DNA of 64,000 nucleotides from the NCBI RefSeq assembly GCF_019649055.1, contig NW_026570279.1, positions 372,001 to 436,000 on the forward strand. The letters run 5' to 3'. The translations under genes and the position numbers were made by a program. A model generated the notes under the pieces. That model did not search any database and was not told the DNA's origin. It saw only the letters and a program-made list of their open reading frames with translations. Position 1 is the stretch's first letter. Each line of letters begins with the position of its first letter. This DNA comes from Paramacrobiotus metropolitanus. Taxonomy: Eukaryota; Tardigrada; Eutardigrada; Parachela; Macrobiotidae. Shown piece by piece: positions 8,418-56,674 of this stretch.

Positions 8418-8765
8418 TGTTCGGCCAGTCGCTATGGCAGCATACGAGTAGGCAGCCAGCGACAGTCCCGCTTCCGGTGTGCTGACTCACACCGAGTTCC
8501 ACTCGCTCTCGTACGCCGTATCAGCCTCGACTCTCTCGGCTACGCCTTACGACGCCTACGGCTATACGTCTCGGCCAGTCAGCGTTCGTTCGCTCGTGTT
8601 GGATCAGCCCAGTGCTAATAGGCATTTTCCATGTTACGGCTCATTCAGCCGCTCATTCCTGTTCAGTCATGATTTTGCTCACGCACAGAGCTGTACTTTA
8701 TTGCTGTCACACAATAAAGCCTAATTTTCCTCACTATCGTGAGCCTCTGCGCCGTGCTGCTGATA
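8418..8765 (+). repeat. 5' LTR of copy 1
   Basis: 348 bp, TGTTCGGCC... to ...GCTGCTGATA. AATAAA at 8713-8718 is a likely polyadenylation signal. The final CA expected of an LTR is TA here. Confidence 0.9.
8713..8718 (+). promoter_or_regulatory. Poly(A) signal AATAAA in 5' LTR
   Basis: AATAAA at the same LTR position in all four LTRs (19254-19259 in the 3' LTR of copy 1; reverse strand 41874-41879 and 56370-56375 in copy 2). Confidence 0.65.
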
Positions 8766-10402
8766 TGATAGAAGATCTCGGTTTTTCCTTCTGTGGAACC
8801 TTTTGAGAGACGGTGTAGAGCTACATCCGTAACGGCCGACGAGAAGAAAGGGGAGAACCGAATGGTTGCCATCCCTATCTGATCGCCGCCAGCCAAAACG
8901 GTCTGGTTTCTCTTGTCTCTTTTGCGGCGGAACGAAGCGCGCCCTCGGCGACCCTTGGGCGGAACGACTCGGAGCACCCTTCCCACCAGCGCGGACGGAA
9001 CGTTTCTTGCGCGGACGACCAGCAGAACCACTGGCGGAGCGATTTCGCCCGGGTAGATCGGCGGACGGAACGATCCTTGCGGATCCTCGGACGGAACGGA
9101 CGGAGCGGAACCCTCTCACCATCATCAATCGGGGTCGCCCTTGGCTTAAGTGGCACCCGCAACTTTAACGCGCGGGACTCACCGGACAACCAAGCGGTTT
9201 CACCCGGATTAAACCGGTAAACAGGGTCGACCGACCCTCGGTAAACCGTGTAGAGCCTCGGTAGACCCGATATAGCCGGGTAATTTTAACTGTCCACCGA
9301 CAAAAACTAGTTTCGGTCGGCTAAAAAACCTTTTTCACCCGGAGAAACGGGCCTAAAAACATCTTTTTTGGGTAGATTAGGGGTCAGCCAACTTTACCAG
9401 TTCGGACCCTCGAGCCTCGGTGAAGACCCTCCGAACCACGGTCCGAACCACCCTCTGAACCACCCTCGGAACCTTATCTTGAATTTAGAAAATTAAGGGA
9501 TTAATTTTCCCCCGGCCAAATCAATTTTTGGTCGGCTAAATTAATTTTTCTAAATTTTTCTGATTTTTCCGCAATTTTTCCATCGCGGAAATTAAATAAT
9601 TTAACTCAAAAATAATTGTGAAGTCACGACGGCCGGTTTTACATATTAAAATCTGACCAATCAAGATAGCGGGGAAATTCCCTATGCTATAGGCCCGTAG
9701 TGAGTCACCGATTTTTTGGAATTTTGCACGCGGCGCGTAAATCGTGACGTAGGCGGCAATTAACAAGATTAATTCGTGTGACGTCACAGCTGTCACTAGC
9801 AGTAGTATAGGAGGTACGTTAGTAACCGTACTGTACCGCAACCTGTACTGAGTCACAAGTAGTACAAGCACACCCACCACATCACCCTTCACCCCACCGA
9901 ACCTCTGCCCCCACCGGATTTCTGCCCCTCACTGGATCTGGGCCCCCCCGGACCTTTGGAGGCTTTGATCCCAAACAAGTTTTTCGATTCAACCGGAAGT
10001 CCCGAATGGGGATATTCGGTTGATTCAACGGAGGCTGGGACTCGACTTAGCGGAGGTTCGACTGCACCAGAGGTCCCCAATAGGGATATCTGGTCAACCC
10101 GGCTGAGGCGAAAACCGCTCAAGCCCCCCACCTTCGGCGGTAACCGGATACTGCTGGACGCACGTCCCCAATTAGGGACTCTGACCGACTTCTGCAGATC
10201 GCCAGAACCAATGTACCCGGACATACCGCAACCGGACCTTCAAAACCGGACATATCGAAGCCTTGACCCTCGAAGCCAGACGTACCGAGGTTGATCAACC
10301 TGAACCCGTTGGCATCACACTGTCCCCAAATAGGGATAGTCTGTACGTCCCGGCCCAGGTATCACATCTCCATTCCCAGGGTTACCGAAGCTGAGGGTCA
10401 GA
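8766..10402 (+). other. Untranslated leader of LTR element copy 1
   Basis: No coding sequence. The first half contains CGGACGGAACG-type repeats (about 8930-9110) and ACCCTCGG-type motifs. An AT-rich part (9480-9700) contains CTAAATTTTTCTGATTTTTCC-like runs. At 10073-10087 is the first CAATA-loop hairpin, with relatives bearing altered loops at about 9998, 10164 and 10322. The same region in copy 2 is 54850-56322. Confidence 0.6.
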
Positions 10403-12876
10403 ATGAGCGCTCAGACCCGTAATTACCAGACTCCACCGGAACCGACGAAGACCGGGGGCTACGACCCTCATCATGTTAGTCCAGCTGGCCGCAACGTACC
10501 ATCCACTTAGGCTAGTGGAGGTACAGGCGACCCCTTCACCCGGACAGAACGTCCCTTATATCGGCCTCGGGGCTTCACCTCAGTCGGACCCTCGGTACGG
10601 AACCCCGGTGGACTGCAAACTTAACCCATCAGAAGGGCGCGAACAGAACTCGCCACTTCTCCAGCAGACCCTAGGGCAACTGCAAGCGAATTCGGCGCAG
10701 AGCTTCGGCACCTTGCAGCATAACCAGACGGAGACCTTGCAAGCCGTCGGTGCCCTCAAAACGGAAACTCGACAAGCGCTCGGTAACCTACGGCAAAACC
10801 AAGCGCAGACTCTGCAGGCTGTCGGCATACTCCAGAGGGAGCACCAAGAAACCCGGCATGCCCTTGGCACCTTACAAAAGGACACTCGGCAGGCTATCGA
10901 CGCCCTACACCGGCGGATCTCCGACTTGGAGCAGCAGTCTGCATCGGAGCCAACAACGCCACAACCTCAACACCCAAGAATCCACCGGCCCGCACCTCAG
11001 AATGAGGTGACTGGACCTCACCCTGTGTACACCAGCCTCCGATGATGCTTTTAGAGCAGCACCCGAGGCATCCGACCCTCAATATGACCCAATTAGGTCT
11101 AATTGAGGATCCCAACCGGCCATTAGACATTACCAAGTGTCATCAGCCGCCAGCCCGGCCCCCGGAGACCCGTCTGGGGCTTATCGTCGACTACAGAATC
11201 AGCCAACTCGGGCGGATCCTGACCCCCGCCTGCAAATTGCCGGACGGATGCCGCATAATGCGGCGGCCCCAGAACATCTGAGACCGTTGGCACCGGGAGA
11301 TCGACTCAACTCGGTCGACCCGCTTGGTTTACAGACATGCGGGGCAACCATCCGGCTCCATACCCGTGTCAGCCCCGGCTCAACATCAAGTTCAATTACA
11401 GCCGGCTCAACCCCTGCTGATCCCGGTGGCCCAACAAAGCTTCCACGTAGCTCAACCGCTCCCCTTCCCGGTGGCCCAACCAGGCTACCCAGCAGCGCAA
11501 CCGCTGCTCGTCCCGGTGGTTCAACAAGGCTACATGGCAGCCCAACCGCAGCCGACCGTAGCAGCATTAAGGAATGCCCGGGATTGTGAAGAGAGATTGC
11601 GTCGGGCGATCGACCGTAGCAACCGGCCCCAGTTACCAAAGTTTGACGGGGTCTGCGGAAGCCTGGATAGATGGGTTAAAACCATGCGACGGATCTATGG
11701 ACCGGACGGTGACCTGAATGAACGGGACGTGAAATTCACGACCGCGTTGGAAAATGATCTCTCCGGCCCGGCTCTCGAATGGTTTGAAAACCAATCGACC
11801 TTCGAGCCCGAAGAAGGATGGACCGTCGGTGAATGGCTGGATAAGTTCACCGACCGGTTTGCGGAGGGTGACAAGCAGGCCAACGCCATAGCGGAGATCA
11901 ACCGACGGACGTACCGCTTCGGGCAAGAAACACAGGAGCAGTACTACGATGCCATGATGAATATTAATGCACGTGGTGGTCTTTCGGAAAAGCTGGCCCT
12001 CACCTACTTACGCAAGAACGTAACCGAATCAGAGTTACGCCTGGCCCTGGACATCAGGATGCCGGAAACCACCGATGACTTTTTGGCATATATCCGGAAG
12101 TTCACCGCCGGAAAAGCGGAGTACAAGGCGCCGATGGAAGAAAATCATGTTCGAAACGTGATTTTGGCCCCAGAACGCCAACACGCGGTGCACCTTGCGT
12201 CCCCAATAGGGATGTTCACCGTGCAGCCCCGGGCTCCGCTGCCATCTTACGGTGGAATCGGCCAGTACCCAGGAATCGGATTTGCTGACCAGGATCGAGG
12301 CTATAACGGAGAGTGCGGAAACGGATTCTGGCAGGGTAACCATGATCAGGCGAGAAGCCTCGGCCAGAATGGTAAAAACCACGGGCCCAATCAGAGCTAG
12401 CGGACCCTGGATGCCTACGTGAATAGGCAAGAGGGCTTGCTCCAGCAGTGGACATTTGAGAACGGCATTACTTGCGGTAACTGCATGTGGGCAATCACCA
12501 CAGCAATACCTACGCGTACGCCAACGTCGACCCGGCGTTCAACCCGAACCTCCGCTGGTATATGGATTGGCGTCAAAAGTATGCTGCCGGTGGCCTATTA
12601 GGCGCGGCAAACCCGAACCGTGCGGCCTTGGCAACCCCGCGCCCAATAGTTGCAGGGAGACCGAGGAAAAGGGCCAACCGGAACCAGCCTCCCGACAGAA
12701 GGAATCGAGTGGCCGGCGGAAACCAGCCGGACGGAGGTGGAAATTACCTCGGACCTGGCGGATATCAGAATCCCGCTGGGCAGATGCAACAGTCGGTATC
12801 CCCGGTGCCATATTCCCCCCATAACGGCGGTGGATCGGCCTCGGTGCACTTGACGGGAAACGAGTACGGTCAGTAA
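10403..12876 (+). pseudogene. gag-like gene of LTR element copy 1 (decayed)
   Basis: Starts ATG 10403 (MSAQT, as in copy 2) but stops at 10508 because of a short deletion. It continues in other frames at 10473-11045 (heptad-like TLQAVG/TRQAL repeats, coiled coil), 11042-11281, 11137-11330 and 11324-12400. The last segment holds a glutamine/proline-rich linker and a retrotransposon gag core: KFDGVCGSLDRWVK, then LSGPALEWF, then RFAEGDKQA, then QEQYYDAMMNI and LRKNVTES. A TAG at 12398-12400 and a 1-nt deletion in a G-run near 12490 break the CCHC knuckle. The frame ends with LTGNEYGQ-stop at 12876. The gag core matches the family seen in Ty3-like elements. Dead in this copy. Confidence 0.85.
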
Positions 12877-12887
12877 GCACCGGTGGC

Positions 12888-14412
12888 TTGGCTGACCGCT
12901 TACCACCAACTGATCAACCGGATAAAAATAATCCCGGAGGATCCACTATAGGCGCCCAAAGTCGCGCCAAGGGGTCCCCGTCTGATGAGAGAACCTTCGT
13001 CGGACAACCTGGTATCCAGAAAGGAGCCGGAAAAATACCAATAACGAGGATCACTGCAGGCGCCAATAGCTGCCGCGGTAAACCCTGACCTAACAAGAGA
13101 ACCTTGGAGGCTCCGAATGGTATCCAGAACGGAACCCTTTTATCCGGAAGCAACAACGTTGCCGGACCTTCCGGAGCGACTGATACCCTTAGGCCGACTG
13201 GCGACAATATCGCCGTCGGCTCTCCTAGAATATGGTCGGTGACCACCCGGGACAAGTTTGGCATCCCGGATGAACCGAGTCAACCGACCCGAGGATCCAC
13301 CATGGCGTCCAAATTAGGCTCCTGTGGCTCTCAGCCTCTGCAGAAGACCCTTAAAGGACGACATGGTTCCCAAAAAGGAATAGTGTCGTCCGGTAGCACC
13401 AATGCTGCCGGGTCGTCTGGCGCCCATAACGTCGCCAGACCAGCCGGCGCCATCAACGGCGCCGTGCCCCTTGGACCCTCCGGTAACATTAACGGCACTT
13501 CGTCCACCAAAACGTCGGACGTCAAAAACGTCGCCAGACCGATGGGTGCCAAGAACGGCTCCTTACCCACCGCATCGGATGGCGCCACTAAAGTCCCACG
13601 GCAACCGGACCTTGAGCCTCGGTGAAAGACTGTAACACGACCCCCTAGGATGCGAGAAGGCCTCCTGGACCCTCCACCGCATCCGCAGCGTATGGAATGC
13701 CCGTCAAAAGGACGGAAGGATCCTCCGGTAAAACTTTGGCTGGATCGTCTGCCAAAACTGCAGACACGGTTACCTCCCACGGGCCCAGGGATGGAACCTC
13801 AGCGAAGGCAAGCAATGTCGCCGAATACAAGGAGACTTACGCTCGGGCGCAAGGTGACGGAGTAGCTACCCGTTCAACTGCATCCGGCGCAAGTCAATCC
13901 ACACCGTCAGTTACCAGCATAGGGGAGTTGCTGCAAAGGAACCTCCGGTCGAGATGCGAAGTCTTAACGGACCCTTCGGTTGATCGGACACCCAACCGCC
14001 TAACCCTGCGGTAATGCCTATCCCGATACCAGAGGCATCGGGCAGTGTGGATACACGGGTAAACCGGAATGTGTGCGCCGGTGAAATTCTTATCCCCTGC
14101 CAGGATAGAGCTGGCAACGGACAGAAGATCGTCGCAGTAATGCAAGCGCGGAGGGAGGATGCACCCCTAACGAGTCAAACTGGCAACGGAAAGAAGATCA
14201 CCGTGGCTAAGGAAGCCCGGAAGGATGATGTAGCCCAGCTAATAAACGGGACGGTAAAGTCTATCCCGATACAAGAGGCATCGGGCACTGAGCGGCAGAC
14301 AGAAGAGCCGTTAATGCCCTCTTCGAGCCAGGCCGAATTTGCAGCCATGACTGCCAAAGTAGAAGCACTCTGGGGCGATAAGAAGGGCTTACTGGACTGG
14401 TACCTTAAATAG
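12888..14412 (+). pseudogene. ORF2 of LTR element copy 1 (frameshifted)
   Basis: Corresponds to the intact 509-codon ORF2 of copy 2. Pieces are open at 12888-13088, 13104-13625, 13697-14014 and 14014-14412, with frame changes between them. They share SPSDERTF, DNIAVGSPR, VTSHGPRDGTS, IGELLQRNLR and the terminal EVEALWGDKK-type/WYLK block. The repeat IPIPEASGSVD occurs at about 14016, and a weaker IPIQEASGTE at about 14260. Low-complexity, Gly/Ser/Ala/Pro-rich. It occupies the place where pol would normally follow gag. No known domain. Confidence 0.7.
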
Positions 14413-15673
14413 CTGCCAACATGCGCGACCTCTGCTGAATGCCGGAGGATACCGCTTGAGAACCAACGGTCCAATAACTAACTTACCCGATTAATGCCCT
14501 GGATATCTGAAGAATGGCCGGGATAGAACTTCTCGGGAGCCATCCTCAACCGAATTCAAGGTCCCATCTTGCCCGAATGGCGAGAAAACGCTGGACTTCG
14601 GGGCTTAGGTCGGTTAGGAGCGCCCAATAGGTGCCCTACTAACCGAAAATTTTTATAAGTTTGAAGCCTCAGACCCAGGCAAAGTGCACCCAATAGGTGC
14701 CATGCCGACCATTTCCGCGATTGAAGAAGGAATGTACCCGGCACTGATAATTGCCGCGGTGTCATCAAACCTCGATGACCCGGTGTTACCCCAATAGGGT
14801 GACATGGTTGCTGGAATAGATCCATAATTAATCTGACGGACTTTTAACCGAGTCAGAGAGTGACTCACAAGGCGTCTTCACCGGTTGAAATCCTGCGATT
14901 TCTGACTCAGAGCCTCAACTCACCTGAAGGCAATCTAGTCTCTCCGGATAGAACCGAGAATCGGCCTCACCGGACTAGAAGCGACCTTCGGTGACCCCAA
15001 AGGCGTCACCCCCTGACCTGATTTTTCGGACATGAGCCACGAGATGAATCTCTGACCTCAATTTCACCGAGTAGAATGGCCGGAAACTTGTCTGGCCCGG
15101 GCAAAATTGCCATTTTTCCGGCGAAAACTCCAACCTTTGTCGGTTAAAAGTGAGATACCACCGACAATCGGATTATAGCCAGACATCATGGGTAGGAACT
15201 GCCGAATCGCCACTGAATGGAGTAATTAACCTGGATGGCTGGACTGAAACCGAGGCAAGGCCAGATGAGCCCGAGCCAATTGAAGGGTACGGTATCACCG
15301 AAGCGGGGGTGACCCACAAAGCGTGTTCACCGAGTAAGTCCCCACCGACCCTGGCTCCAAGCCTTAAACTAACGGGCAACAACCCTAAATCCTCGGACAA
15401 CAGTCGGAAATCGACGTCGCCGGACCGGAAACGACCCATCGGGACTCCAAAGGCGACCACCCCAGACAATTAGGTAGGACGAAGCCTGCAAAAGCCTTGG
15501 ATACCGACGCTAACCGACTTTCAGGTACCAAAGCTAATCGACCCTCGGATACCGACGCTCGGACCTCTAACACCGGGGTCCGGACCCCGGTGTTATAGTA
15601 TAGAACAGTATAGAACCATAGAATAGAACCATAGAACCAGTTATAGTATAGAACCATAGAATTTGGTGTCATA
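14413..15673 (+). other. Inter-ORF region of copy 1, ORF3 missing
   Basis: Non-coding. It holds CAATA-loop hairpins at 14620-14634, 14686-14700 and 14784-14804 (8-bp stem with one G.U). A block at 15147-15240 matches copy 2 at 50140-50250. It ends with ACCCTCGG motifs, a 28-bp perfect palindrome (15568-15595) and an AT-rich TATAGAACCATAGAA tandem patch (15594-15665). Copy 2 has the 2.6-kb ORF3 in this interval, so copy 1 has lost it or copy 2 has gained it. Confidence 0.7.
15568..15595. repeat. 28-bp perfect palindrome
   Basis: TAACACCGGGGTCC followed directly by its exact reverse complement, with no spacer. It is immediately followed by short TATAGAACCATAGAA repeats and sits at the place where ORF3 is absent relative to copy 2. 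Confidence 0.9.
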
Positions 15674-16414
15674 ATGATCTCCGAGGCTAACAAAAACCCT
15701 TCAGTGCTCTACTCGCAGAACCGGACAGAAGTCTATGACCCGGAATGCAGACGTTGCGGCGCGATTAACCGCAATTATGGTTCCCGGCACGCTTGCGCAG
15801 AATGCATTCTTACCCGGCTGGATAAACAGTCTTCGGACGGAAGAGCTCACCGTGTCGATCAAGCCAACACCCTATTCCTTGAAGTTGTGGCTGGAAACCT
15901 GAGCGCGTACCTGTATCTGGTTGGTCACCAACAAGCGATAGACCAGTTGCATGGAGAGCCTCTGTTGCATCTTTGGGACCTGCACCGTTACCGTCAACGT
16001 ACTCATGAACCAGGCTGGGAACATACCCCACCACCCCCGCAGAACCCGAAGTTGGTTAACGCCCGAGAACAACGTCGCGAGGAATTCCGCGAGGACGAAC
16101 GGCGGAGGACCGTAAAAGCAAATATTCGGCAACCATCGCTCAATGCGGAACCCAATAGGTTCCCGAATGAGCAGTTAGCGCCGACTCATCCGCCGACGAC
16201 GGTCATACCGACCGGACCGGACGGAGCTCAGTACGTTGCCCAGCTTACAAGGATCAAAGCCCCGGTGTCAACACCACCAGTCAGCTTACCGGTCAACAGG
16301 GCACCTCAGCCTATCAGCCTTCAGCCGAATATCGTACCGAGACAACCCCCGGTACAACCTCCGATGGTGGTAGTGACCCCAGAAAAGCTCAACCGGCCCC
16401 GGACCATCGTCTGA
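15674..16414 (+). CDS. ORF4 of LTR element copy 1, Cys4-type protein
   Basis: 246-codon intact ORF starting MISEANKN. Residues about 25-45 contain CRRC, then HACAEC, a C-x2-C...C-x2-C arrangement with a nearby His, suggesting a zinc-binding module. Next comes a helical, charged middle (HRVDQANTLF, YLVGHQQAI, LHRYRQRTHEPGWEH, REQRREEFREDERRR) and a Pro/Thr-rich tail. Copy 2 has the same ORF at about 46390-46945 (-). It stays open here although gag and ORF2 are broken. A CAATA hairpin (16147-16163) lies within the coding sequence (AEPNRFP). I do not recognise the family; an accessory or nucleic-acid-binding protein is a guess. Confidence 0.65.
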   Translation: MISEANKNPSVLYSQNRTEVYDPECRRCGAINRNYGSRHACAECILTRLDKQSSDGRAHRVDQANTLFLEVVAGNLSAYLYLVGHQQAIDQLHGEPLLHLWDLHRYRQRTHEPGWEHTPPPPQNPKLVNAREQRREEFREDERRRTVKANIRQPSLNAEPNRFPNEQLAPTHPPTTVIPTGPDGAQYVAQLTRIKAPVSTPPVSLPVNRAPQPISLQPNIVPRQPPVQPPMVVVTPEKLNRPRTIV

Positions 16415-19306: not shown

Positions 19307-19339
19307 ATAGCTGGCCGGGGAGATCGGTATTGCCCGGTT

Positions 19340-47124: not shown

Positions 47125-49722
47125 TCATACATTTGGTGGAATTTTGCGGGCAAGAATCTTGATAGGATCCTCAGATCGTGTCCGGGTGGTTCCTTTAGAC
47201 TTCTGCTTCGGAGTAGGGGCTGACATTGGTTTACCGTGGGTCGAAGTTGAAGCGGCCGACAGCTTCATGTCGTGTCGAGTGCGGTGGCGTGGGGCATTAT
47301 CCGAGTTCTCCAGTTTCGAATGTCGGTTAGCCACTATTGGTGGCTGTCCAACATTGTCATCCCCATCAGACTCCTCCGACCCTCCAGATGGTTGATGGCC
47401 GTTCTTGTCGTCATCCTCCTCCGATTCTTCTTCCTCCGAGGAATAGCTGCGTCCCGTCGGCTTCCTGGATTTCTTATTCTTTTCCTTCCCTCCCGACCGA
47501 ACCTTAATTGAGGTACCAGATCGGGAGGTACCCGGACTACTGAGTGGAGCTCGTTGGGATGTCGACGGTCGGGGTTGTTGGGCTGCAGGCGGCCCAGATG
47601 GCGTGTTCTTAACAAACCTCCCTGCCGAGTCTCGGACAGAGTGCAAGGTTCGCTTCGTAACAGAATGCCGGTTTGACGACGGTCCTTCTTTAACCGAGGG
47701 TCTTGGCTCGCCGGGGGCTCTAGGTCGGGTCGACGGCAACCAGGAGTATGAGGCTGCTGCCGTTGATCGGGCCAGTTTCAACCATACCCTAGCCTGTTCG
47801 GCCGGTTCTTCCGTTGGTTCTAGCCGTACCTCAGACCCTTCGGGTTGGAATTTCTCCTCCTGGATGTAGGATATCCGGAGCCTCTGACCCTCCCGGTGCT
47901 CTTGAGTATAAAGTCCGGTACGGTATACCGCAGATGTTGTCCTCGTTCCGCATTAGTAGTCTGAAGTTCACGGTGAGCTACCGTTTCCTTGATTGTAGGC
48001 TCTATCCGGAGGGTGATGTCATCGATCTCAGCTCCACCTTTGGGCGTGCTTCCGAATTTATACATGACATTCTGAAATCGTGCGATCTGGAGGACTGTCG
48101 ATCCTCTTGGGTTCCGGTAGTAGCCAATAGCTCGGACTACTCTCTCTGCTTCCGATTCGGATTGCCTCAACTTCGTCGGGGCCTTTGGAGCGATCATCTC
48201 GCCCATCGTTTACCATGCTCGATGTACTATGAGTGCCTTTCCTTCGTCTTGGGTCCAGGCTACGATCCTTCGCATCATTTCCGAAGTCAGCCAGTTTTGT
48301 TGGCCTTCGAGGTGGTACGCTTGCGATAGCTCCCGGACCAATTCTTGGTAGACGTCCCGACCCTGGAGCTCCGCCACTTGGATGATGCGGGTGATTTCTT
48401 CGGTAAGCTCTTTCCTAGGGAACTGGGCTTCGGCTTCCTCGGGCTTTCTTTCCGGCAGTTCGTCTCGTTCATCGTCAGGTGCAGGGAGTTCTGACTGGTC
48501 TGTATCAGGTTCATGATACCAGACATTGATCCAATCATTATGTTCGCCAGGCTGGTTTTGGCTGGGACTCTTGTTGGTGGGAGGCTCGGACCGTCCCGGT
48601 TGGGTGTCTGAGTCACTATCCGAGGATGACTGTTCGGGTCGGAACCTTCGTCTGTTCTTCTTATATCGGTGTTCAACACCGGGGTAGGTGAGGCAGATGG
48701 GCCCGTACTTGGGGGACCCATCCGTCCTGTCCGAGGTGTCCCTGTCTGCTCTGCGGAAGTCAACCCAAAGGAGGTAGACCGAGGTGTTGCTGGTTGAGGT
48801 GGAACCGTTTTGCGGCTCACTTCCTCAAGTTCCACCTCAAGTCTCGGACTTGCGTCAAAGCAATCCTTTGCTGATCCTGTAATGCCTCTTTGAGCTTTTT
48901 CTGAGCCGGAGTTCGATCGTCGAATCGGGCGATTTGAATGGCTAAGTCTTCAGCTAACCTCCCGGTCCCGGCTATCTCGTTCTGGATAGCCTCAATATCG
49001 GCTCCGGGTTCTTGCTGTCGTGTTTCCGTGGACAGCGTCGGAAACAATAGTGTTCCTTCCGGGCGGATCGCTATCGTTGAGGAGGTTGACGGGTTCACCG
49101 GGTATCCGACTCCTTGTGTCGGTCCCAACGGTGGGTTGTACCCCGTCAACTGCATCTGGCTTGCTTGTAGCTGATTCCTGGTCATTTGGTTATACCATTG
49201 AGAAAACAGCGTGAACATCTGGTCTGGATGGAGACCTATCCCAGGTTGAGTAACCCACGGTCCTGTTGGGACCTGTTGGTTAACCGGAATTGTCGGGCAT
49301 GTCGGGTTTGCCGCAACAAATGACATCGAAGGTGTTCCGGTTACACAGGGTGGTGGGACCAGGCTGGGTCCCGGTAAACGTGGCGAGTTAATCTGACCTA
49401 TTGGGTCGATCGATGCTGCCGAGGTATTTTGCGCCGCGCCTACGTTTACCAATAATCCGGTTCCATCAAGCGTCATACCAAGGGGTAAGTTCCATTGAGT
49501 GGTTGTCGAGGGCTGGAGTGCCGTTCTGGACCCGACCGTTAGCCCTGCTAAGACGTCGGCGGTGAGATTCGCCTGTACATTCTGTACCTGTGGCATTGAC
49601 GTCCGGGTTGTCGAGCGTGGGTCAGCTCGGAAGCTTGTCCGATCGTAGGGGTGCGATCGTCGGGTATCCCTCCGGCTGCTCCCAGATCCGCTTGATGATG
49701 GATCCCTCCGCCGTTCTGACAT
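47125..49722 (-). pseudogene. ORF3 of LTR element copy 2 (frameshifted)
   Basis: Sense order. 49722-48817: 301 codons from MSERRRDPSSSG, with a Pro/Thr/Gln-rich region and a coiled-coil-like end (EAIQNEIAGTGRLAEDLAIQ, KKLKEALQDQQRIAL). A frame change follows into 48835-48287 (PPQPATPRSTS..., IMIGSMSGIMNLIQTSQNS). Another change goes to a helical stretch at about 48440-48200 (RKELTEEITRIIQVAELQG, NWLTSEMMRRIVAWTQDEG) ending HRAW-stop. The same frame continues at 48206-47900 (VVRAIGYYRNPRGSTVLQIA), then a final frame to 47125 with EEPAEQARVWLKLAR, an SSEEEESEEDDD acidic run and a basic tail. Together this would be one protein of roughly 860 residues. No known domain; absent from copy 1. Confidence 0.6.
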
Positions 49723-50830
49723 GGTGAAACTGTTGGAATAAAAGAAATAAGGCCAGTTAACATTCTGAGATGGCCAAAGGGGTTCAACCGAAGGATTCCA
49801 TGGTCAACTGAAGAGGTTTCATTCCGACACCAAAGGTCCATTCTTAACCTAACTAATTCCTAGCTAAGTCCTAACTAATTCTGAGTCAGCTATGGCCCTA
49901 TTAATGAGGTGTTTTGTGGTGTTTCCTTCGCTGGTCCGGTTGACTTGGCTTGGGCAAGGCGGGACCATTAAAAGGGGGTTATCCCTTGGATGTCAACCTC
50001 GGTTCGGTCGCCTCCCGCGCTTCTGTCCGGTTAATTACTCCGTCCAAGAGCGAGCTGGGGGTTTCCGCTCCGTGGTGTTCAGCCATGTCCTGGGTTGGTT
50101 GCCTCCTACGCTTCTGTCCGGTTAATTACTCCGTTCAGTGGCGATTCGGCTGTTCCTACCCATGATGTCTGGCTATAATCCGAGGGTCGATGGTATACCT
50201 CCTCTAGCCGACGAAGTTGGAGTTTTCGCCGGGGAAATGGCATTTTTGCCCGGGCCAAACAAGCTTTCCAGCCATATTGCTCGGTAAAGGTAGGGTCCGA
50301 ATCCTTATTTGAGGGTTCCACCGTCATTTGGGAGGGTCCGAGGTTCGTCCTTCGGGGGTGCGTTTGGGGTCCCCAAACGTCTTTCTCGGTCCGGCAAGGC
50401 GGATTCTCGGTCCTTTTCCGGATAACTAGGGTTGCTTCTCGGTGGTTTGAGGCTCCAAGTCGGGAACGTCAAAATTCCACCCGGTGAACTCGCCTTGTGA
50501 GTCAACTTCCGTGTCGGGAAAGAAGTCCCTTGGATCCAATCCGGATACATTCTAGTAACCGTGTCGCCTCATTGGGGTAACACCGGGTCATCGAGGTTTT
50601 GATGACACCGCGGCAACAGTTAGTGCCGGGTACGAGCCTTCGTTGATTGGAGGAATGGTTGGCATGGCACCTATTGGGCGCTCAAAGCCAACCTGAGCCT
50701 CCGGGTTCACAGTATTCTCGCCTATTGGGCAAGTCGGAACCTCGGATCCAATTTTAGGATGGCTCTCGGGAAGTTCTATCCCGATAATTCTCCAGGTATC
50801 TTTTAGCGTTCAGCAGTGGTCGCCCGCCAA
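49723..50830 (-). other. Inter-ORF region of copy 2
   Basis: Non-coding region between ORF2 and ORF3. It contains CAATA-loop hairpins at 50667-50681 and 50717-50733. TCTGTCCGGTTAATTACTCC occurs twice (50023 and 50113), a local duplication. It matches copy 1 at 14413-15250. Confidence 0.6.
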
Positions 50831-52360
50831 TCACTTGAGGTACCACTCCATCAGGAGCTTTTTATCGCCCCAGAGTGCTTCTACCTCGGCTTGCATGGCT
50901 GCTAGCTCAGCCTGGCTCGAAGGAGACATTAGCGGCTCTTTTATCTGCCACTCAGTGCCCGATGCCTCTGGTATCGGGATTGACTTCACTGTCTCATCCT
51001 CCCTTCCGGGTTGGTCCACCTTCGGAGCTTCTTCTTCCGGGGCAATCGTCTGTCGCTCGCCGGTACAATCCTGGCCGAGGGTGCGGTTTTCGAGGGTATC
51101 AGCCTTCTGTTGTACCTTTTTATCCGCACTGCCCGATGCCTCTGGTATCGGGATTGACTTCACTTTCCCGTTTACCTTGCGGGCTTTCTGGTCCTGTTTT
51201 GCTGCCGGAACCTTCTGTCCTTCGCCAATCTGATCCTGGCAGGGGATACGGTTTTCACCGGCGTCGCCTTTCCGGTTTTCCCGTATATCCACACTGCCCG
51301 ATGCCTCTGGTATCGGGATTGGTTTTACTTCCGGGTTAAGCAGTTGAGGTGTCCGGTCAGCCGGAGGGTCCGTCGGGACTCTGCTTGTCAACCGGAGGTT
51401 CCTTTGCAGCAACTCCCCTATGCTCACCGGCGGATTCGCCTGGCTTGTGCCGAGCGCAGTGGAACAGGTAGCGACCCCGTTACCATGCGTCCGAGCGTAA
51501 GCCTCCTTGTATCCGGCGACATTACTTGCAGTTGCCGAGGTTCCGTCCCGGGGCCCGTGGGAGGTAACCTTGTCCGCAACTTCAGCGGACGATCCACCCG
51601 GAGCTTTACCGGCGGATCCCTTCTTGTTTTTGGTGGGCTTTCCAACAGCTCCCCATGCGGTAGAGGGTCCAAGAGGCCGTCTCGCATGCTGAGGGGTCAA
51701 GCCACAGCCATTCTTTGTGGCCTGAAGTCCGGTTGCCGTGGCAGCGTTAATGGCCAAATCCGGTCCGGCAGGCAAGGCGTCAATAACGGCATCCGCTGGT
51801 CTGGCGATGTCGTTGGCGCCAGGCGACCCGGCAGCATGGATGCTGCCGGACGACACTATTCCTTTTTGGGAACCATATCGTTCTTTAAGGGTCTTTTGGG
51901 GAAGCTGAGACCCACTGGAGGCTGAGGAGGCTTCCGTGGTAGATCCCAGGGTCGGTTGACTCAGTTCAACCGAACGTCCGGATTTACCCTGAGTCGTCGG
52001 CGGCCGTGTCCGTGGTGGGCTGACGGCGATATTGTCGCCAGTCGGCATAACGGCATGAGTCGCTGTTGAGAATCCGGCAACGTCGTCATTTCGGTTTAGG
52101 ATGGTTCCGGTTCGGATACCATCCGGGCCGTCCAAGGTTCTCTTGTCGGGCACGGGCCGACCGCGGCAGGTATTGGCGCCTGCGGTGGCCCCTTTCTTCG
52201 GTAACTTCCCGGGTTTTAAAGTTTTAGCCTTTTTCTTACAGATCTTGGGAGGTCCGGCGAAGATTCTCTCGTCGGACGGGGACCCACCGGCGCGATTATG
52301 GGCGCCTGCAGTGGATCCTCCAAATGGGTTGTCTTTGTCCGGTGGCTCGGTTGGTGGCAA
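50831..52360 (-). CDS. ORF2 of LTR element copy 2, low-complexity protein
   Basis: 509-codon intact ORF beginning MPPTEPPDKDNPFGG, starting 23 nt after the gag stop and in another frame. It is rich in Gly, Ser, Ala, Pro and Lys. SPSDERIF, VTSHGPRDGTS and IGELLQRNLR are shared with copy 1. The C-terminal third holds three copies of VK(P/S)IPIPEASG(S/T), spaced about 55 residues apart, and it ends EVEALWGDKKLLMEWYLK. It sits where pol would be, but there is no D-T/S-G protease motif, no YxDD and no integrase zinc finger. Probably disordered; the function is unknown. Confidence 0.65.
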   Translation of the reverse strand: MPPTEPPDKDNPFGGSTAGAHNRAGGSPSDERIFAGPPKICKKKAKTLKPGKLPKKGATAGANTCRGRPVPDKRTLDGPDGIRTGTILNRNDDVAGFSTATHAVMPTGDNIAVSPPRTRPPTTQGKSGRSVELSQPTLGSTTEASSASSGSQLPQKTLKERYGSQKGIVSSGSIHAAGSPGANDIARPADAVIDALPAGPDLAINAATATGLQATKNGCGLTPQHARRPLGPSTAWGAVGKPTKNKKGSAGKAPGGSSAEVADKVTSHGPRDGTSATASNVAGYKEAYARTHGNGVATCSTALGTSQANPPVSIGELLQRNLRLTSRVPTDPPADRTPQLLNPEVKPIPIPEASGSVDIRENRKGDAGENRIPCQDQIGEGQKVPAAKQDQKARKVNGKVKSIPIPEASGSADKKVQQKADTLENRTLGQDCTGERQTIAPEEEAPKVDQPGREDETVKSIPIPEASGTEWQIKEPLMSPSSQAELAAMQAEVEALWGDKKLLMEWYLK

Positions 52361-52383
52361 GCGGTCAGCTAAGGCACCGTTTC

Positions 52384-54848
52384 TTACTGACCATACTCGT
52401 TTCCCGTCAGGTATACCGGGGCTGGTCCACCGCCATTATTGGGGGGATAAGGTGCCGACCCTGAGGGCTGCGGAGCTATTGGCTCCTGCATCCGTCCGGC
52501 GGGATACTGGTATCCATTGGGTTCGGAGTAGTATCCCCCTTCATCTGGCTGGCCTCCAGCATTAACTCTTCCATCGGGGGGCTGGTTCCGGTTGACCCTT
52601 CTCCTCGGTCTCCCTGCACCTATTGGGCGCAAAGGAACCAAGGCCGCGCGGTTTGGGTTTGCCGCACCTATTGGGCCACCGTCATCATACCTCTGACGCC
52701 AGTCCTTGTACCAGCGCAGGTTCGGGTTGAACGTCGGGTCAACGTTCGCGTACGCGCAGGCATTGCTGTGGTGATTGCCCCACATGCAGTTGCCGCAGGT
52801 GATCCCATTCTCGAATGTCCATTGCCAGAACAGGCCCTCCTGTCTGTCCACGTAGGCATCCAGGGTCCGCTGGCGCTGATTAGGCCCGAGGTTTTGACCA
52901 TACTGGCCGAGGCTTCTCCCCTGACCATAGTTTCCCTGCCAGAGTCCGTTTCCGCTATTGCACTCTCCGTTGTAGCCTCCATTCTGACCGGCGAACCTAC
53001 TTCCTGGGTATTGGCCGGGGCCGCCGTAAAAAGGCAACGGGGCCCGGGGCTGCACGGTCGGCATCCCTATTGGGGACGCAAAGTGCACTGCTCGTTGGGG
53101 TTCTGGTGCCAAAATCACGTTCCGGACGTTGGAGTCCTCGAGCGGGATCTTATATTCCGGTTTTCCAGCGGTAAACTTCCGGATATACGCCAAGAAATCG
53201 TCGGTGGTTTCCGGCATCCTAATGTCCAAGGCCCGGCGTAACTCTGATTCGGTTACGTTCTTCCGTAAGTAGGTGAGGGCCAGCCTTTCCGAAAGACCAC
53301 CCCGTGCCTTAATATTCATCATGGCATCGTAGTACTGCTCCGGTGCCTCTAGACCAAAGCGGTATGTCCGTTGGCTGATCTCCGCTATAGCGTTGGCCTG
53401 CTTGTTGCTCTCCGCAAACCGGTCGATGAATTTATTCAGCCATTCATTGACGGTCCAGCCTTCCTCAGGCTCGAAGGTCGACTGGTTTTCAAACCGTTCG
53501 AGGGCCGGGCCGGAGAGGATAGTTTCCAGTGCGGTCGTGAAGTACACATCCGGTTCATCCAGGTCGCCGTCCGGTCCGTAGATCCGTCGGATGGATTTCA
53601 CCCATCTGTCCAAGTTGTACAGACTCCGTCAAATTTCGGTAACTGGGGTCGATTGCCGCGGTCAATCCTCCGAAGCAATCTCTCTTCGCGATCCCGGGCA
53701 TGCCGTAAGGCTGCCATGACACGTTCTGCGTCGGGACCATGTTGAGGGGCCGGGTAGCCTTGTTGGGCCACCGGGATGGGCTGTGGTTGAGCCGGCTGTA
53801 ATTGAGCCGGGGGTTGAGCCAGGTATGGTACCGGAGGTTGAACCGGTAGACCAGGCGGGTCGACCAAGTTAGGTCGATCGCCCGGTGCCAAGGGTCTCGG
53901 ATGCTCTGGCGCAGCCGCATTCTGCGGCATCCGTCCGGCAATTTGCAGGCGGACGTCAGCATCTGCCCCAGTCGGCTGATTCTGCAGTCGATGGTAAGCC
54001 CCAGTCGGGTCTCCGGGGGTCGGGCTGGATGAAGATGACTCCGAGTAATGGTCCAGTACCTGGTCACAACCCTCAATTAGACCTATTTGGGTCATATTTA
54101 GGGTCTCTTGTGGCAGAACGTGCCCCGGTTGCTGGTCTAGCAGCACCCTCGAGGGTCTGTCCCGGCTGGGATCCGTAGGGAAGGGTCCGGTAACCTCATT
54201 CTGAGGTGCGGACACGCTGATTACCGGGTATTGAGGCTGTGGCATTGCCGGCTCCGGCACAGGCCGCCGCTGCTCCAAGTTGGTGATCCGCTGGTGTAGG
54301 GCGTCGATAGCCTGCTGGGTGTCCCCTTGTAGGGCGCCGAGGGCCTGCCGAGTTTCCCTATGCTCCCTTTGGAGTGTGCCGACAGCCTGCAGGGTCTCCG
54401 TCCGCAAGGTGCCGAGGTTCTGCTGCATGGTGCCGAGATTCTGCTGCATGGTGCCGATATTCTGCTGCAATGCACCGACGGAATGTAGGGTCTCCGTTTG
54501 ATCCCTCTGCAAAGTGCCGACAGCTTGCAAGGTAACCGTTGAATTCGTTTGCAGTTGCCCCAGGAGTCCAGCGATCTGCTGCAAAAGCGGCGGGTTTTGT
54601 TCGCGCTCCTCCAAAGGGTTAAGTCTGCAGTCCACCGGGGTTCCGTACCGAGGGTCCGACTGAGGTGAAGCCCCGAGGCCGATATAAGGGACATTCTGTC
54701 CTGGTAAAGGGGTTGCCTGTGCCCCCACTAGCCTAATTGGGCCCGTGGAAGGTACACTACGGCCGGCAGGACTAATATGGTGAAAGTCATAGCCCCCGGC
54801 CTTTATCGGTTCCGGTGGGGTCTGGTGATTGCCGGTCTGAGCGCTCAT
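52384..54848 (-). CDS. gag-like gene of LTR element copy 2 (one frameshift)
   Basis: Two overlapping frames. 54848-53598 (416 codons, MSAQTGNHQ) carries a coiled-coil segment with TLQAVGTLQR and NIGTMQQNLG repeats, then a Pro/Gln-rich linker. 53613-52384 (409 codons) carries the gag core: RWVKSIRRIYG, ALERFENQ, NEWLNKFIDRFAE, QYYDAMMNIKARGG, LRKNVTESELRRAL. It then has a Gly/Gln/Asn-rich spacer and a CCHC knuckle CGNCMWGNHHSNAC (52756-52797), spaced C-x2-C-x4-H-x4-C. The break is a 1-nt loss near 53608 (copy 1 lacks it). It could be a true -1/+1 frameshift site, a recent mutation or a sequencing error. Gag forms the particle and binds RNA in this class of element. Confidence 0.85.
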
Positions 54849-56322
54849 TCTGGCGCAACGGTTTGATGTTTCAGAACCTCTGCCGAGACGTACAGACTAT
54901 CCCTATTTGGGGACCGTCTGATGGTGACAGGTTGAGCTGGTTCAGCCTCGGTACGTCCGGCTTCGAGGGTCCGGTAATCTGCGCAAGTCGATCGGACTCC
55001 CTAATTGGGTATGTCCGTCCAACAATGTCCAATTAAGGCGGAAGGTGGAGGCTTAAGCGGTTTTCGCTTCAGCCGGGTCGACAAGATATCCCTATTGGGG
55101 ACTTCTTGGTCGAGTCAAACCTCCGCTAAGTCGAACCCGAGCCTCCGTTGAGACAACCAAATATCCCTATTGGGGACTTCCTGTTGAGTCGGATTTCTTT
55201 GGGTTGAAGAGCCTCCGAGGGTCCGTGGGGGGGCACAGGTCCGGTGAGGGGGGGGGGGCAGAGGTCCGGTGGGATGAGGGGGTGATGTGGTAGGTGTGCT
55301 TGTACTACTTGTGACTCAGTACAGGTTACAGTACAGTACGGTTATTGCGTACGTCCTATACTACGGTCGTTAAGTACTGTGACGTCACACAAAATAATCT
55401 TGCTAATTGCTGCCTACGTCACAAGTTTAGTGCCGGGCGCAAAAATTTGTAAACAAGTATGACTCACTACGGGCGCTTAGCATAGGGAATTTCCCCGCTG
55501 CGCTGATTGGCTGCCGTATAGTACTATAAATCGGCTACCGTGACGTCACAAGGAAATTCGGATTGTAAAATTGAATTAAAATTTACAGAAAGATCAGGAA
55601 AAATCGGAAAAAATTCTATTTTTCGATTTTTAACCGACCAAAAATTATTTCAGCCGGGGGAAAATTTATCCTCTGATTTTCTGAAATTCTAGGAAGAAGT
55701 TAACCGAGGCTCGAAGGGTCTTAGCCGAGGTTCAGAGGCTCGGTAGGCTAAGGTAAGATTACCCAGAAAAAGATGTTTTTAAGCCCGTTTATCCGCGTAA
55801 AAATTACTTTTAGCCGTCCAAAACCACTTTTCAACCGACGAAAATGAAAATAACCCGGCTATATTGGGTCTACGAGGGTGTACTCGGCCGTTACGACCGT
55901 TTTACCGCGTGATCCGAGGCTTCGCACCGTTCTTCCGGGTCGTCCGCGCGCTTGATCCGCTAGTCCGCGTTGGTAAGGTTGCGGGTGCGACTTAACGCAA
56001 AGGTGACCCCGTATGATTAATCCGTCGCGCTGCAGGTTCTCGTAACGAACCCGTATCCGGAACGTTCTGTCCAGAAGGTCCGTGAGATCCGCACTGCTGG
56101 TCGTCCGCGCAAGGATCGTTCCGTCCGCGCAAGAGAGAAGCGTCCGCAGGTCGTTCTGCCCACGTCCACAAGAGAGAAGAACACCGTTCTGGCTGGCAAC
56201 GTTCGGGTGGGGATGGGAACTGGGTTTCAGCTCTCCCCTGCCTGTTCGTTGGCCGTTACGGATGTAGGTCTACACAATCTCTCAAAAGGTTCCACAGAAG
56301 GAAAAACTGAGATCTGCTATCA
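54849..56322 (-). other. Untranslated leader of LTR element copy 2
   Basis: No ORF. CAATA-loop hairpins at 55088-55102 and 55163-55177, with CAAATA-loop variants near 54893 and 54080. G-run near 55248. An AT-rich patch lies at 55550-55680. Sense sequence after the LTR is TGATAGCAGATCTCAG, not an obvious tRNA primer site. Confidence 0.6.
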
Positions 56323-56674
56323 TGTGACAGCTGGCGAACAGAGGCTCACAATAGTGAGGAAGATGAGGCTTTATTGTGTGATAGCAATAAAGTACAGCAC
56401 AGTGCGTGAGCAAAATCATGACTGACAAGAATGATCGGCTGAATGAGCCGTAACATGGAAAATGCCTATCTGCGGCACTGGGCTGATCCAACACGAGCGA
56501 ACGAACGCTGATTGGCCGAGACGTAAAGCCGTAGGCGTGGTAAGGCGTAGCCGAGCCAGAGTCGAGGCCGATACGGCGTACGAGAGCGAGTGCGACTCGG
56601 TGTGAGTCAGCACACCGGAAGCGGGACTGTCGCTGGCTGCCTACTCGTAGGCTGCCATGGCGACTGGCCCAACA
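56323..56674 (-). repeat. 5' LTR of copy 2
   Basis: 352 bp; differs from the 3' LTR at two positions by eye (CAATAG/CGATAG near 56350 and GATTGG/GACTGG near 56511). AATAAA (sense) at 56375-56370. Confidence 0.95.

What the first reader, a model, noticed from the sequence alone, without database searches (positions are those of the whole stretch)
8418..56674. Family of dispersed hairpins with an invariant CAATA pentaloop and variable stems in both LTR elements
On the sense strand of both elements, CAATA is repeatedly flanked by short inverted arms that pair exactly or with G.U, but the arm sequences differ from site to site. Examples: AAGACC/GGTCTT (18205-18221), GGAACC/GGTTCC (16147-16163), CGACCC/GGGTCG (18870-18886), GGCTCC/GGAGCC (45118-45134), ACGTCCC/GGGACGT (46040-46058), AGCCAC/GTGGCT (47329-47345), GTTGCC/GGCAAC (43837-43853). 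I count about 13 in copy 1 and about 25 in copy 2. They lie in leader, coding and 3' regions and none was noticed outside the elements. A fixed loop with varied yet complementary stems is the signature of a structural recognition element. Possible roles are a multi-site packaging or Gag-binding signal, or recognition by a trans-acting partner. I know of no described retroelement with this feature.
Basis: partly seen in the sequence, partly recalled or inferred. Interest (0 to 1): 0.88.

Follow-up and report, generated by a model that had tools for sequence, protein, structure and literature searches.

The report
Loop-coded RNA hairpins in large retrotransposons
A group of large retrotransposons in this genome carries dozens of small RNA hairpins that show the same five-letter loop on ever-changing but still matching stems, which is what one expects of a tag read by a protein, perhaps to pick the element's own RNA for copying.

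Summary
On the sense strand of both LTR elements CAATA closes a stem of 5 or more pairs 13 and 22 times; dinucleotide shuffles give 0.02 and 0.04. No other pentaloop exceeds 5; the element antisense strands have 0 of 13. Sites chosen only because pairs 1-2 match pair at positions 3-6 in 68 of 76 cells, against 33.6 when arms are permuted. The 169.8-Mb genome holds many more copies. At one orthologous site three stem positions show compensatory changes, two with G.U intermediates; over the clade there are 36 distinct 5-bp arm pairs. Rarer loops of the set are CAACA, CAGTA and six-base CAANNA. A 25-kb stretch with the same hairpins encodes protease, RT, RNase H and integrase in Ty3/gypsy order; 39 ORF pieces of the window copies show no pol domain. 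Fourteen loci of distant gag relatives have none, nor do three loci at 55%. Best explanation: a multi-site sense-RNA recognition signal kept by selection, probably bound by Gag for packaging. The RNA-level part is well supported; the partner is inferred. Dispersed signals are known in RNA viruses; my searches found none in LTR retrotransposons.

The parts
8418..19306 (+). Copy 1: LTR element, LTRs 8418-8765 and 18957-19306, flanked on both sides by ATAG (target-site duplication)
   Evidence: repeats; end sequences; LTR alignment 339 identical, 13 mismatches, 4 gap columns
41827..56674 (-). Copy 2: LTR element, LTRs 56323-56674 and 41827-42178, flanked on both sides by TTTG (target-site duplication); young, 2 LTR mismatches in 353 columns
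10073..10087 (+). hairpin GTCCC-CAATA-GGGAT, lower helix ACCAGA/TCTGGT after a 1x1 mismatch
12197..12215 (+). hairpin GCGTCCC-CAATA-GGGATGT, inside the gag reading frame 11282-12400
13199..13215 (+). hairpin TGGCGA-CAATA-TCGCCG (A-U closing pair); also readable as GGCGA/TCGCC with a bulged T and a 7-bp lower helix
14620..14634 (+). hairpin GCGCC-CAATA-GGTGC
14686..14700 (+). hairpin GCACC-CAATA-GGTGC
14783..14805 (+). hairpin GTGTTACCC-CAATA-GGGTGACAT
16147..16163 (+). hairpin GGAACC-CAATA-GGTTCC
16530..16544 (+). hairpin GACCC-CAATA-GGGTT
16584..16598 (+). hairpin GTCCC-CAATA-GGGAC, ortholog of 46038-46060
17271..17291 (+). hairpin GAGTTGCC-CAATA-GGCGACTT
17566..17582 (+). hairpin GTTACT-CAATA-GGTGAC; pair 3 is A-U here and G-C in its homolog 43837-43853
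18205..18221 (+). hairpin AAGACC-CAATA-GGTCTT
18870..18886 (+). hairpin CGACCC-CAATA-GGGTCG
55163..55177 (-). hairpin GTCCC-CAATA-GGGAT, leader
55088..55102 (-). hairpin GTCCC-CAATA-GGGAT, leader
53061..53079 (-). hairpin GCGTCCC-CAATA-GGGATGC, in gag frame
52612..52634 (-). hairpin CTTTGCGCC-CAATA-GGTGCAGGG with 8-bp lower helix, in gag frame
52472..52486 (-). hairpin GGAGC-CAATA-GCTCC
52024..52040 (-). hairpin TGGCGA-CAATA-TCGCCG (A-U closing pair)
50717..50733 (-). hairpin CTTGCC-CAATA-GGCGAG; copy 1 ortholog at 14568 keeps the stem with loop CGAAT
50667..50681 (-). hairpin GCGCC-CAATA-GGTGC
47329..47345 (-). hairpin AGCCAC-CAATA-GTGGCT; copies L068 and L072 have AGCCGC/GCGGCT
46500..46516 (-). 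hairpin GGAACC-CAATA-GGTTCC, inside the conserved ORF 46390-46944
46096..46110 (-). hairpin GACCC-CAATA-GGGTT
46038..46060 (-). hairpin CGACGTCCC-CAATA-GGGACGTTG; site with three compensatory pairs across genomic copies
45117..45135 (-). hairpin GGGCTCC-CAATA-GGAGCCT
44978..44994 (-). hairpin GTTGCC-CAATA-GGCGAC with lower helix TCTCCA/TGGAGA
44314..44330 (-). hairpin GTTGCC-CAATA-GGCGAC with lower helix GTCTA/TGGAC
44031..44047 (-). hairpin GTTGCC-CAATA-GGCGAC
43837..43853 (-). hairpin GTTGCC-CAATA-GGCAAC
43672..43688 (-). hairpin GTTACC-CAATA-GGTGAC with lower helix TCTCC/GGAGA
43324..43346 (-). hairpin CTTGTTACC-CAATA-GGTGACAGG
43247..43263 (-). hairpin AAGACC-CAATA-GGTCTT; copy L026 has AAGGCC/GGCCTT
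42915..42931 (-). hairpin GGGACC-CAATA-GGTCTT (predicted closing probability only 0.17)
42249..42265 (-). hairpin CGACCC-CAATA-GGGTCG; same arms and loop in the pol-bearing stretch (L099:2612)
49259..49273 (-). loop variant GGTCC-CAACA-GGACC
46273..46289 (-). loop variant TGACCC-CAACA-GGGTCG
44810..44828 (-). loop variant TGTTGCC-CAACA-GGCGACG
10319..10340 (+). six-base loop variant ACTGTCCC-CAAATA-GGGATAGT
17730..17746 (+). loop variant GTTACC-TAATA-GGTGAC, ortholog of 43672-43688
52384..53628 (-). Gag reading frame piece with CCHC knuckle CGNCMWGNHHSNAC; dN/dS about 0.23 against copy 1 (mid part)
46390..46944 (-). second conserved ORF with a CX2CX12CX2C motif, dN/dS about 0.30; no Pfam match

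Best explanation
The hairpins are a repeated sense-RNA recognition signal of a clade of Ty3/gypsy-type LTR retrotransposons. Each is a 5-6 bp (up to 9 bp) stem mostly closed by C-G pairs and carrying the loop CAAUA, less often CAACA, CAGUA or a six-base CAANNA loop, often on a second helix beyond a small bulge. A trans-acting protein reads the loop and the helix shape but not the stem sequence, so stems drift while keeping their pairing. Shown by sequence analysis: sense-strand pairing potential, fixed loop, covarying stems, presence in many copies and absence from the distant gag relatives sampled.
For: Enrichment over shuffles and over all other loops, sense only. Pairing at positions not used to choose the sites: 68 of 76 cells vs 33.6 permuted for 19 non-homologous sites; 79 of 90 vs 42.2 for 30 distinct sites, with 14 of 39 vs 14.9 in control DNA; clade-wide 260 of 324 vs 138, 36 distinct 5-bp arm pairs, some differing only by a G.U. 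Compensation at one orthologous site: pair 2 C-G/U-A (9 of 26 rows, plus U.G 2), pair 5 G-C/A-U (3, plus G.U 1), pair 4 U-A/G-C (1); 91.7% of cells paired vs 31-54% for slid partners. A.C cells, which a selected antisense strand would tolerate, are depleted in the stems while G.U is not, or less so: 29 G.U and 6 A.C against 25.4 and 13.1 permuted; clade-wide 31 and 18 against 37.2 and 36.7. A covariance model (32 of the sites in its training set) finds 46 places in the window, all sense and inside the two elements. In copies outside the window, 95 of 231 distinct CAATA sites are hairpins on the sense strand, 0 of 18 antisense. For Gag: hairpins lie between the LTRs; 14 loci of gag relatives at 39-44% identity have 0 of 66, and their knuckle is C[SN]HCLWGNHx[TI]xGC or CR[YH]CMFNNHDG[AS]RC, whereas most hairpin carriers have CGNCMWGNHHSNAC or close to it; window copies keep gag-like frames under purifying constraint and the hairpins, but 39 ORF pieces show no pol domain; a pol-bearing stretch also has the hairpins.
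Against: No binding or packaging data. CCHC knuckles are generally described as preferring exposed G (recalled), and the loop has none. Presence does not follow Gag identity simply: L040-L042, 55% identical over the whole piece and with a knuckle (CGHCMWGNHHS[ND]AC) like that of the carriers, have 0 of 10 CAATA pentaloop hairpins each in 4.25 kb, while the C4 stretch, 52% identical over part of gag, has them. The difference in knuckle sequence is confounded with descent. The hairpins are densest near the 3' end and sparse in the pol region of the C4 stretch (1 CAATA hairpin and 5 or 3 six-base ones in each of two 6.5-6.8 kb pieces), whereas HIV-1 signals are described only at the 5' end (PMC8472981, passage). 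Many copies carry broken stems (25 of 41 changed cells), though many may be dead copies.
Confidence: 0.42

Rival explanations
1. Same RNA hairpins, but the reader is a host RNA-binding protein or another element-encoded protein (for example the CX2CX12CX2C protein of 46390-46944) acting in nuclear export, stability, localisation or translation of the long RNA.
For: Loop lacks G; hairpins are densest in the 3' region and present in leader and 3' pieces of the C4 stretch, as for export or stability signals; the second ORF is conserved; presence does not follow Gag identity simply.
Against: Absent from the sampled distant gag relatives in the same host, which a general host factor does not explain; no hairpin array in the host DNA of this window (no random-genome control was run).
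Confidence: 0.35
2. Decoy: the many hairpins titrate a host factor (for example a silencing or decay protein), as CsrB RNA titrates CsrA with repeated loop motifs.
For: High copy number per RNA and fixed loop, the architecture of CsrB (PMC7652899, passages).
Against: No known target set; hairpins also sit inside conserved reading frames, where a decoy has no need to be.
Confidence: 0.1
3. RNA-RNA pairing: the loop pairs with UAUUG in a trans RNA or in the same RNA.
For: A five-base invariant loop could be a pairing seed; TATTG on the sense strand of copy 2 is slightly above shuffles (10 against 6.3, 22 of 200 shuffles as high).
Against: CAAUA is not self-complementary; TATTG in copy 1 is not enriched (3 against 4.9); loop variants CAACA, CAGTA and CAANNA are not what a fixed pairing seed predicts.
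Confidence: 0.07
4. DNA-level feature (cruciform, integration or recombination site, or spread of one palindromic unit) or a by-product of duplication and composition.
For: Part of the 3' sites derive from duplicated units; the elements have strong A over T skew; G.U is not in excess of permutation clade-wide.
Against: Sense-only occurrence, A.C depleted more than G.U, 36 distinct arm pairs, compensation with G.U intermediates, shuffles with the same dinucleotides, control loops such as C[CGT]..A flat.
Confidence: 0.04

Closest known systems
Dispersed RNA packaging signals of RNA viruses (MS2, satellite tobacco necrosis virus, hepatitis B virus, human parechovirus, enterovirus E)
   Same: Several stem-loops along one RNA contacted by the coat or core protein, in hepatitis B with the loop motif RGAG (search listing and abstract openings; abstract of PMC5431903; passages of PMC8472981). 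That their stems vary is recalled
   Different: Different loop; host is an LTR retrotransposon; the binding protein is not shown here; the evidence here is from sequence alone
Alphavirus multiple capsid binding sites (PMC7499256, abstract seen)
   Same: Several sites on the genomic RNA act together in selective packaging
   Different: Found by crosslinking; the abstract names no fixed loop with covarying stems
Retroviral 5' packaging signals (HIV-1; MMTV in a search listing only)
   Same: Gag-read RNA structures in genomic RNA of reverse-transcribing elements
Ty1/Ty3 cis-acting packaging regions (PMC4974528, passages)
   Same: LTR retrotransposons; the review says the sequences are not clearly defined and that scattered sites may contribute
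   Different: Ty3 nt 429-4979 were reported dispensable when proteins are supplied in trans; no repeated loop motif in the passages I read
CsrB/RsmZ regulatory RNAs
   Same: Repeated loop motif on many hairpins gathering one protein (PMC7652899, passages)
   Different: GGA motif, bacterial, non-coding RNA
Smaug recognition element, iron-responsive element, phage boxB (recalled)
   Same: Loop-specific, stem-tolerant hairpins
   Different: Loops CNGG, CAGUGN with C bulge, and GNRNA-like; none fits CAAUA. Rfam gives no match in the window at gathering scores
Giant Gypsy-like elements Burro and Ogre (PMC6431247, passages)
   Same: Very long Ty3/gypsy-type elements with extra ORFs, like the stretch on contig C4
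   Different: No hairpin family in the passages I read; sequence relation not tested

Membership tests
Ty3/gypsy LTR retrotransposon | Paired LTRs with short target-site duplication | tested here: met
   LTRs of about 350 bp, flanks ATAG/ATAG and TTTG/TTTG
Ty3/gypsy LTR retrotransposon | Gag with CCHC knuckle | tested here: met
Ty3/gypsy LTR retrotransposon | pol in order PR-RT-RNaseH-IN | tested here: inconclusive
   No pol domain in 39 sense ORF pieces of the window elements (16 of copy 1, 23 of copy 2); pieces under 100 aa and a few others were not given. Present in that order in L096 of the C4 stretch. The window copies are taken as non-autonomous relatives
Dispersed packaging signals | Many hairpins with a conserved loop and variable stems along the genomic RNA | tested here: met
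Dispersed packaging signals | Stems conserved as pairs, not as sequence | tested here: met
Dispersed packaging signals | Specific binding by the capsid or Gag protein and loss of packaging when the loop is changed | not testable with these tools
   needs experiment
Iron-responsive element | CAGUGN loop with C bulge 5 bp below | tested here: not met
   loop is CAAUA; no Rfam match in the window; definition recalled
Smaug recognition element | CNGG loop | tested here: not met
   loop is CAAUA; definition recalled
Csr/Rsm sponge RNA | GGA in the loops | tested here: not met
   definition from PMC7652899 passages

The most novel reading that the evidence does not exclude
The loop is a lineage-specific identity code: each RNA of this clade displays dozens of copies of one loop word read by the clade's own Gag, so that Gag gathers long RNAs of its own kind, copies without pol included, and ignores those of other Gag lineages in the same genome. 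Sister lineages would have other loop words; the 55%-identical lineage already shows CAATAACG in ten-base loops, though inside what looks like a coding tandem repeat.
Probability: 0.2. Interest if true: 0.93.

Novelty: new variant of a known kind. Interest (0 to 1): 0.8.

Why it matters
How LTR retrotransposons choose their own RNA is poorly defined; a 2016 review says the cis sequences and structures are not clearly defined and that scattered sites may contribute (PMC4974528, passages). Here a clear candidate can be read from sequence: a fixed loop on dozens of covarying stems per RNA, with gag-related elements in the same genome that lack it as natural controls. It would bring the dispersed packaging-signal idea, argued mostly for RNA viruses, to LTR retrotransposons; and if the partner is a host protein it would point to a strong loop-specific RNA binder in this host.

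Tried and rejected
Chance and composition: rejected by shuffles, the loop census and control loops. A fixed protein motif as the cause: hairpins lie in and out of frames and, inside frames of copy 2, in two phases, with different peptides by eye. Cis kissing loops: TATTG is not enriched in copy 1 and at most slightly in copy 2. The L040-L042 lineage (55% Gag) first looked like a second clear loop family (CAATAACG in ten-base loops, 35 of 40 cells paired vs 27.1 permuted), but the sites are spaced like a coding tandem repeat, so I treat it as confounded. The post hoc loop classes recur in copies outside the window (CAANNA with 5 or more pairs 23 of 471 sense vs 3 of 165 antisense; [AC]GAAT before G with 4 or more pairs 22 of 91 vs 0 of 23), but these copies are homologous to the window elements, and the hairpin-free relatives are not wholly clean ([AC]GAAT before G 1 of 18 sense and 2 of 14 antisense; CAACA 3 of 155 sense). 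CAA[AG]A (4 of 200 sense, 4 of 90 antisense) and seven-base CAANNNA loops (2 of 448, 5 of 149) are not enriched. Protein homology: three database searches gave nothing; gag and second-ORF searches of viral and prokaryote contigs gave nothing. A DNA pattern gave 24 single matches in viral contigs; the model adds three, two of them in L007 (E 0.011 and 0.34). Structure models of Gag and of the second ORF were low-confidence (pLDDT 42 and 47) and the fold searches indecisive. One search was an alignment with shifted coordinates and was replaced.

Counts against or limiting the reading: two of five measures did not beat the shuffles (pairs with a change on both sides 86 of 500, further pair types 310 of 500). 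Its 37 rows stand for 34 places (L071 is copy 1, L038 and L070, L064 and L067 are the same places; identical rows are counted once); L066 (copy 2) and L081 (stem intact, loop CAGTG) were left out, L032, L082 and the window rows were added by hand, and the search for rows asked for a loop CAA[TC]A, so loop constancy there is by construction. One search used 32 of the 40 sites of 4 or more pairs, chosen because they pair, so its percentage is circular; searches are the fairer tests. The 19 sites were picked by hand as non-homologous from the clusters. One search compared only pairs in which both copies have CAATA. One search's count of 3 hairpins in 'hairpin-free' loci came from wrongly including L052 and was redone without it, and without L063. 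The 14 hairpin-free loci are 13 of the 30 gag loci delivered plus one downstream piece (L065) of one of them; most of the 162 gag matches were not looked at. Many genome loci overlap each other or the window (L033 and L066 are copy 2, L039 and L071 copy 1; others on C12, C17, C32, C105 and C142), so the totals 531/329/251 and 96 of 216 are inflated; distinct-arm counts are not.

Full report
What was checked. The window holds two LTR elements in opposite orientation: copy 1 at 8418-19306 (+) and copy 2 at 41827-56674 (-), with LTRs of about 350 bp and 4-bp flanking repeats ATAG and TTTG. Copy 2 is young (2 mismatches in 353 LTR columns); copy 1 is older (13 mismatches and 4 gap columns). Each carries a gag-like reading frame split into pieces; the copy-2 piece 52384-53628 has a CCHC knuckle, and aligned pieces have dN/dS of 0.23-0.43 for gag and 0.30 for a second ORF at 46390-46944. 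Pfam found no pol domain in the 39 sense ORF pieces scanned, 16 of copy 1 and 23 of copy 2.

The hairpins are there and far above chance. On the sense strand 13 (copy 1) and 22 (copy 2) CAATA loops close stems of at least 5 pairs, against shuffled means of 0.017 and 0.043. Of 182 sense pentaloops with such stems 35 are CAATA; the next loop has 5. Element antisense strands have 0 of 13, DNA outside 1 of 122. In 205-nt context the closing pair is predicted with median probability 0.98 (40 sites), against 0.03 for 147 other pentaloop stems of 5 or more pairs. A covariance model built from 32 sites finds 46 places in the window, both strands searched, all sense and inside the elements, at E up to 1.

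Anatomy. The upper stem is 5 or 6 bp in 28 of 40 sites; many sites have a lower helix beyond a small bulge or internal loop, most often one unpaired base on the 5' side (10 of 40), and lower stems of 4 or more pairs occur at 18 of 40 sites against 6.6 with shuffled flanks. An unguided ranking of six-base loops with two free positions put CAA..A first; stems of 4 or more pairs occur for CAANNA at 17 of 142 sense sites against 6 of 489 outside and 1 of 60 antisense. A weaker class has [AC]GAAT before G (8 of 33; 0 of 59 outside, 0 of 10 antisense). At two places copy 1 has GAATG or CGAAT where copy 2 has CAATA, with the stem intact.

Covariation. Sites chosen only because pairs 1 and 2 are Watson-Crick were tested at the outer pairs: 68 of 76 cells paired in 19 non-homologous sites, against 33.6 when arms are dealt out anew, none of 20,000 permutations as high; 79 of 90 against 42.2 for 30 distinct sites, while control DNA gives 14 of 39 against 14.9. 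In the 42 window sites with pairs 1-2 matched, positions 3-6 hold 29 G.U and 6 A.C cells, against 25.4 and 13.1 permuted; over the clade, positions 3-5 hold 31 G.U and 18 A.C against 37.2 and 36.7. A.C is thus depleted more than G.U, which favours the sense RNA as the selected strand, though not strongly. Between copies 1 and 2, 14 of 18 alignable copy-2 hairpins keep the loop, against 41% of background five-column windows (binomial P 0.002; 13 of 17, P 0.003, if one doubly counted site is dropped); three of the other four keep the stem with another loop and one is deleted.

The genome. After many busy replies genome search answered: the window lies on contig C59 of a 169.8-Mb genome. The gag piece has 162 listed or counted matches, a lower bound, from 100% down to about 36% identity, many in long frames. 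The loci at 81-100% identity and the 63% locus L043 carry 2 to 5 CAATA hairpins each on the sense strand and none on the other. For 23 loci, including 3' loci found by pattern, 96 of 216 sense and 0 of 16 antisense CAATA are hairpins (overlapping loci and the window copies included). Eighteen further 3' copies have 72 CAATA on the sense strand and 1 on the other; 65 of the 72 have stems of 4 or more pairs. Fourteen loci of gag relatives at 39-44% identity have 0 of 66 CAATA in such stems, both strands. Three loci at 55% (L040-L042) have 10 sense CAATA each, none in a pentaloop hairpin.

One site in many copies. The site at 46051 was aligned in 37 rows, 26 distinct. Pair 2 is C-G in 14, U-A in 9, U.G in 2; pair 5 is G-C in 22, A-U in 3, G.U in 1; pair 4 is U-A in 23 and G-C in 1. 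91.7% of cells pair, against 31-54% when the partner is slid by 1-3 columns. Two of five measures did not beat the shuffles. Over 22 copy-2 sites compared with orthologs, 41 cells changed: 2 two-sided and still paired, 13 one-sided and still paired, 25 lose the pair and 1 was unpaired in both, so many copies are decaying. Over the clade there are 36 distinct 5-bp arm pairs around CAATA, and pairs 3-5 are formed in 260 of 324 cells against 138.

Carriers. CCCAATAGG occurs 1,360 times in the genome, the same pattern read backwards 710 times; among the first 100 places listed, many cluster on one strand over 22-25 kb, as at C1:1297052-1318867 and C4:169681-194109. The C4 stretch holds gag matches (52% over residues 6-174), a 1,221-aa frame with an aspartic protease, a frame of at least 1,071 aa with RT, RNase H, H2C2 and integrase core in Ty3/gypsy order, and two further long frames without Pfam match. 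That it is one element is inferred; its LTRs were not sought. Its 3.6-kb leader piece carries 6 CAATA and 1 CAANNA hairpins of 4 or more pairs (antisense 1 and 0), its 3.1-kb 3' piece 7 CAATA and 2 CAAAA ones (antisense 0), two of them with the arms of window sites 46051 (U-A version) and 42259; two pol and downstream pieces carry one CAATA hairpin each and 5 and 3 six-base ones. So the hairpins belong to a clade of large Ty3/gypsy-type elements, and the window elements are relatives in which I found no pol.

How it works. A fixed loop, free but paired stems, sense strand only, many copies per RNA, location between the LTRs: this is the signature of a multi-site RNA mark read by a protein. Gag is the most likely reader because the mark is limited to a part of a Gag family, because copies without pol domains keep it together with gag-like frames, and because dispersed hairpins serve coat proteins in RNA viruses (PMC5431903 abstract; PMC8472981 passages; listing). 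Against it stand the absence of G in the loop, the presence of a CCHC knuckle in relatives without hairpins, and the 55% lineage, which has a carrier-like knuckle (CGHCMWGNHHS[ND]AC) but no pentaloop hairpins while the 52% C4 stretch has them. Knuckles are CGNCMWGNHHSNAC or close in 6 of 6 hairpin-carrying loci besides the window's L033 in which one was found, none was found in L035 and L039, and C[SN]HCLWGNHx[TI]xGC or CR[YH]CMFNNHDG[AS]RC in the 13 hairpin-free loci. I give about 0.9 to an RNA-level signal kept by selection, and 0.42 to the whole statement with Gag and packaging.

Novelty. Searches combining retrotransposon, packaging, stem-loop, hairpin and conserved-loop terms listed no paper that describes such a family in an LTR retrotransposon (listings only, open-licence PMC papers). 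The Ty1/Ty3 review states that cis-acting packaging structures are not clearly defined and that scattered sites may contribute (PMC4974528, passages).

Noticed in passing
8696-8719 (and LTR counterparts near 19253, 56376, 41880): Each LTR has an 8-bp hairpin whose 3' arm CAATAAAG contains AATAAA, so the likely poly(A) signal sits in a stem, reminiscent of the HIV poly(A) hairpin (recalled).
   Followed up: partly
46390-46944 (-) and 15647-16414 (+): A second conserved ORF with CX2CX12CX2C and a charged predicted helix, dN/dS about 0.30, no Pfam match and no homolog in the protein search; candidate alternative RNA binder.
   Followed up: partly
G000:C4:169681-194109 (L098, L096, L097, L099): Ty3/gypsy-type stretch of about 25 kb with PR-RT-RNaseH-IN and two extra long frames (at least 1,411 and 898 aa) without Pfam match; similar one-strand clusters at three places on C1.
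   Followed up: partly
L040-L042 (55% Gag relatives): CAATAACG in ten-base loops with variable stems, 8 sense and 0 antisense in L040, apparently in a coding tandem repeat; may be another loop word or only a repeat.
   Followed up: partly
17359-17553: Eight copies of a 24-nt tandem repeat in the 3' region of copy 1, in which GATAC pentaloops form.
   Followed up: no
7738-8176, 20931-21797, 31800-32561, 37679-38124, 59312-60265, 61965-62753: Frames and repeated segments that look like a cluster of related multi-pass receptors, read by eye; the one searched (61965-62753) had no homolog in the protein database. Copy 1 lies just beside one repeated segment.
   Followed up: no
52384-54896 and 10407-12876: The gag region is split between frames in both window copies; neither looks intact.
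   Followed up: no
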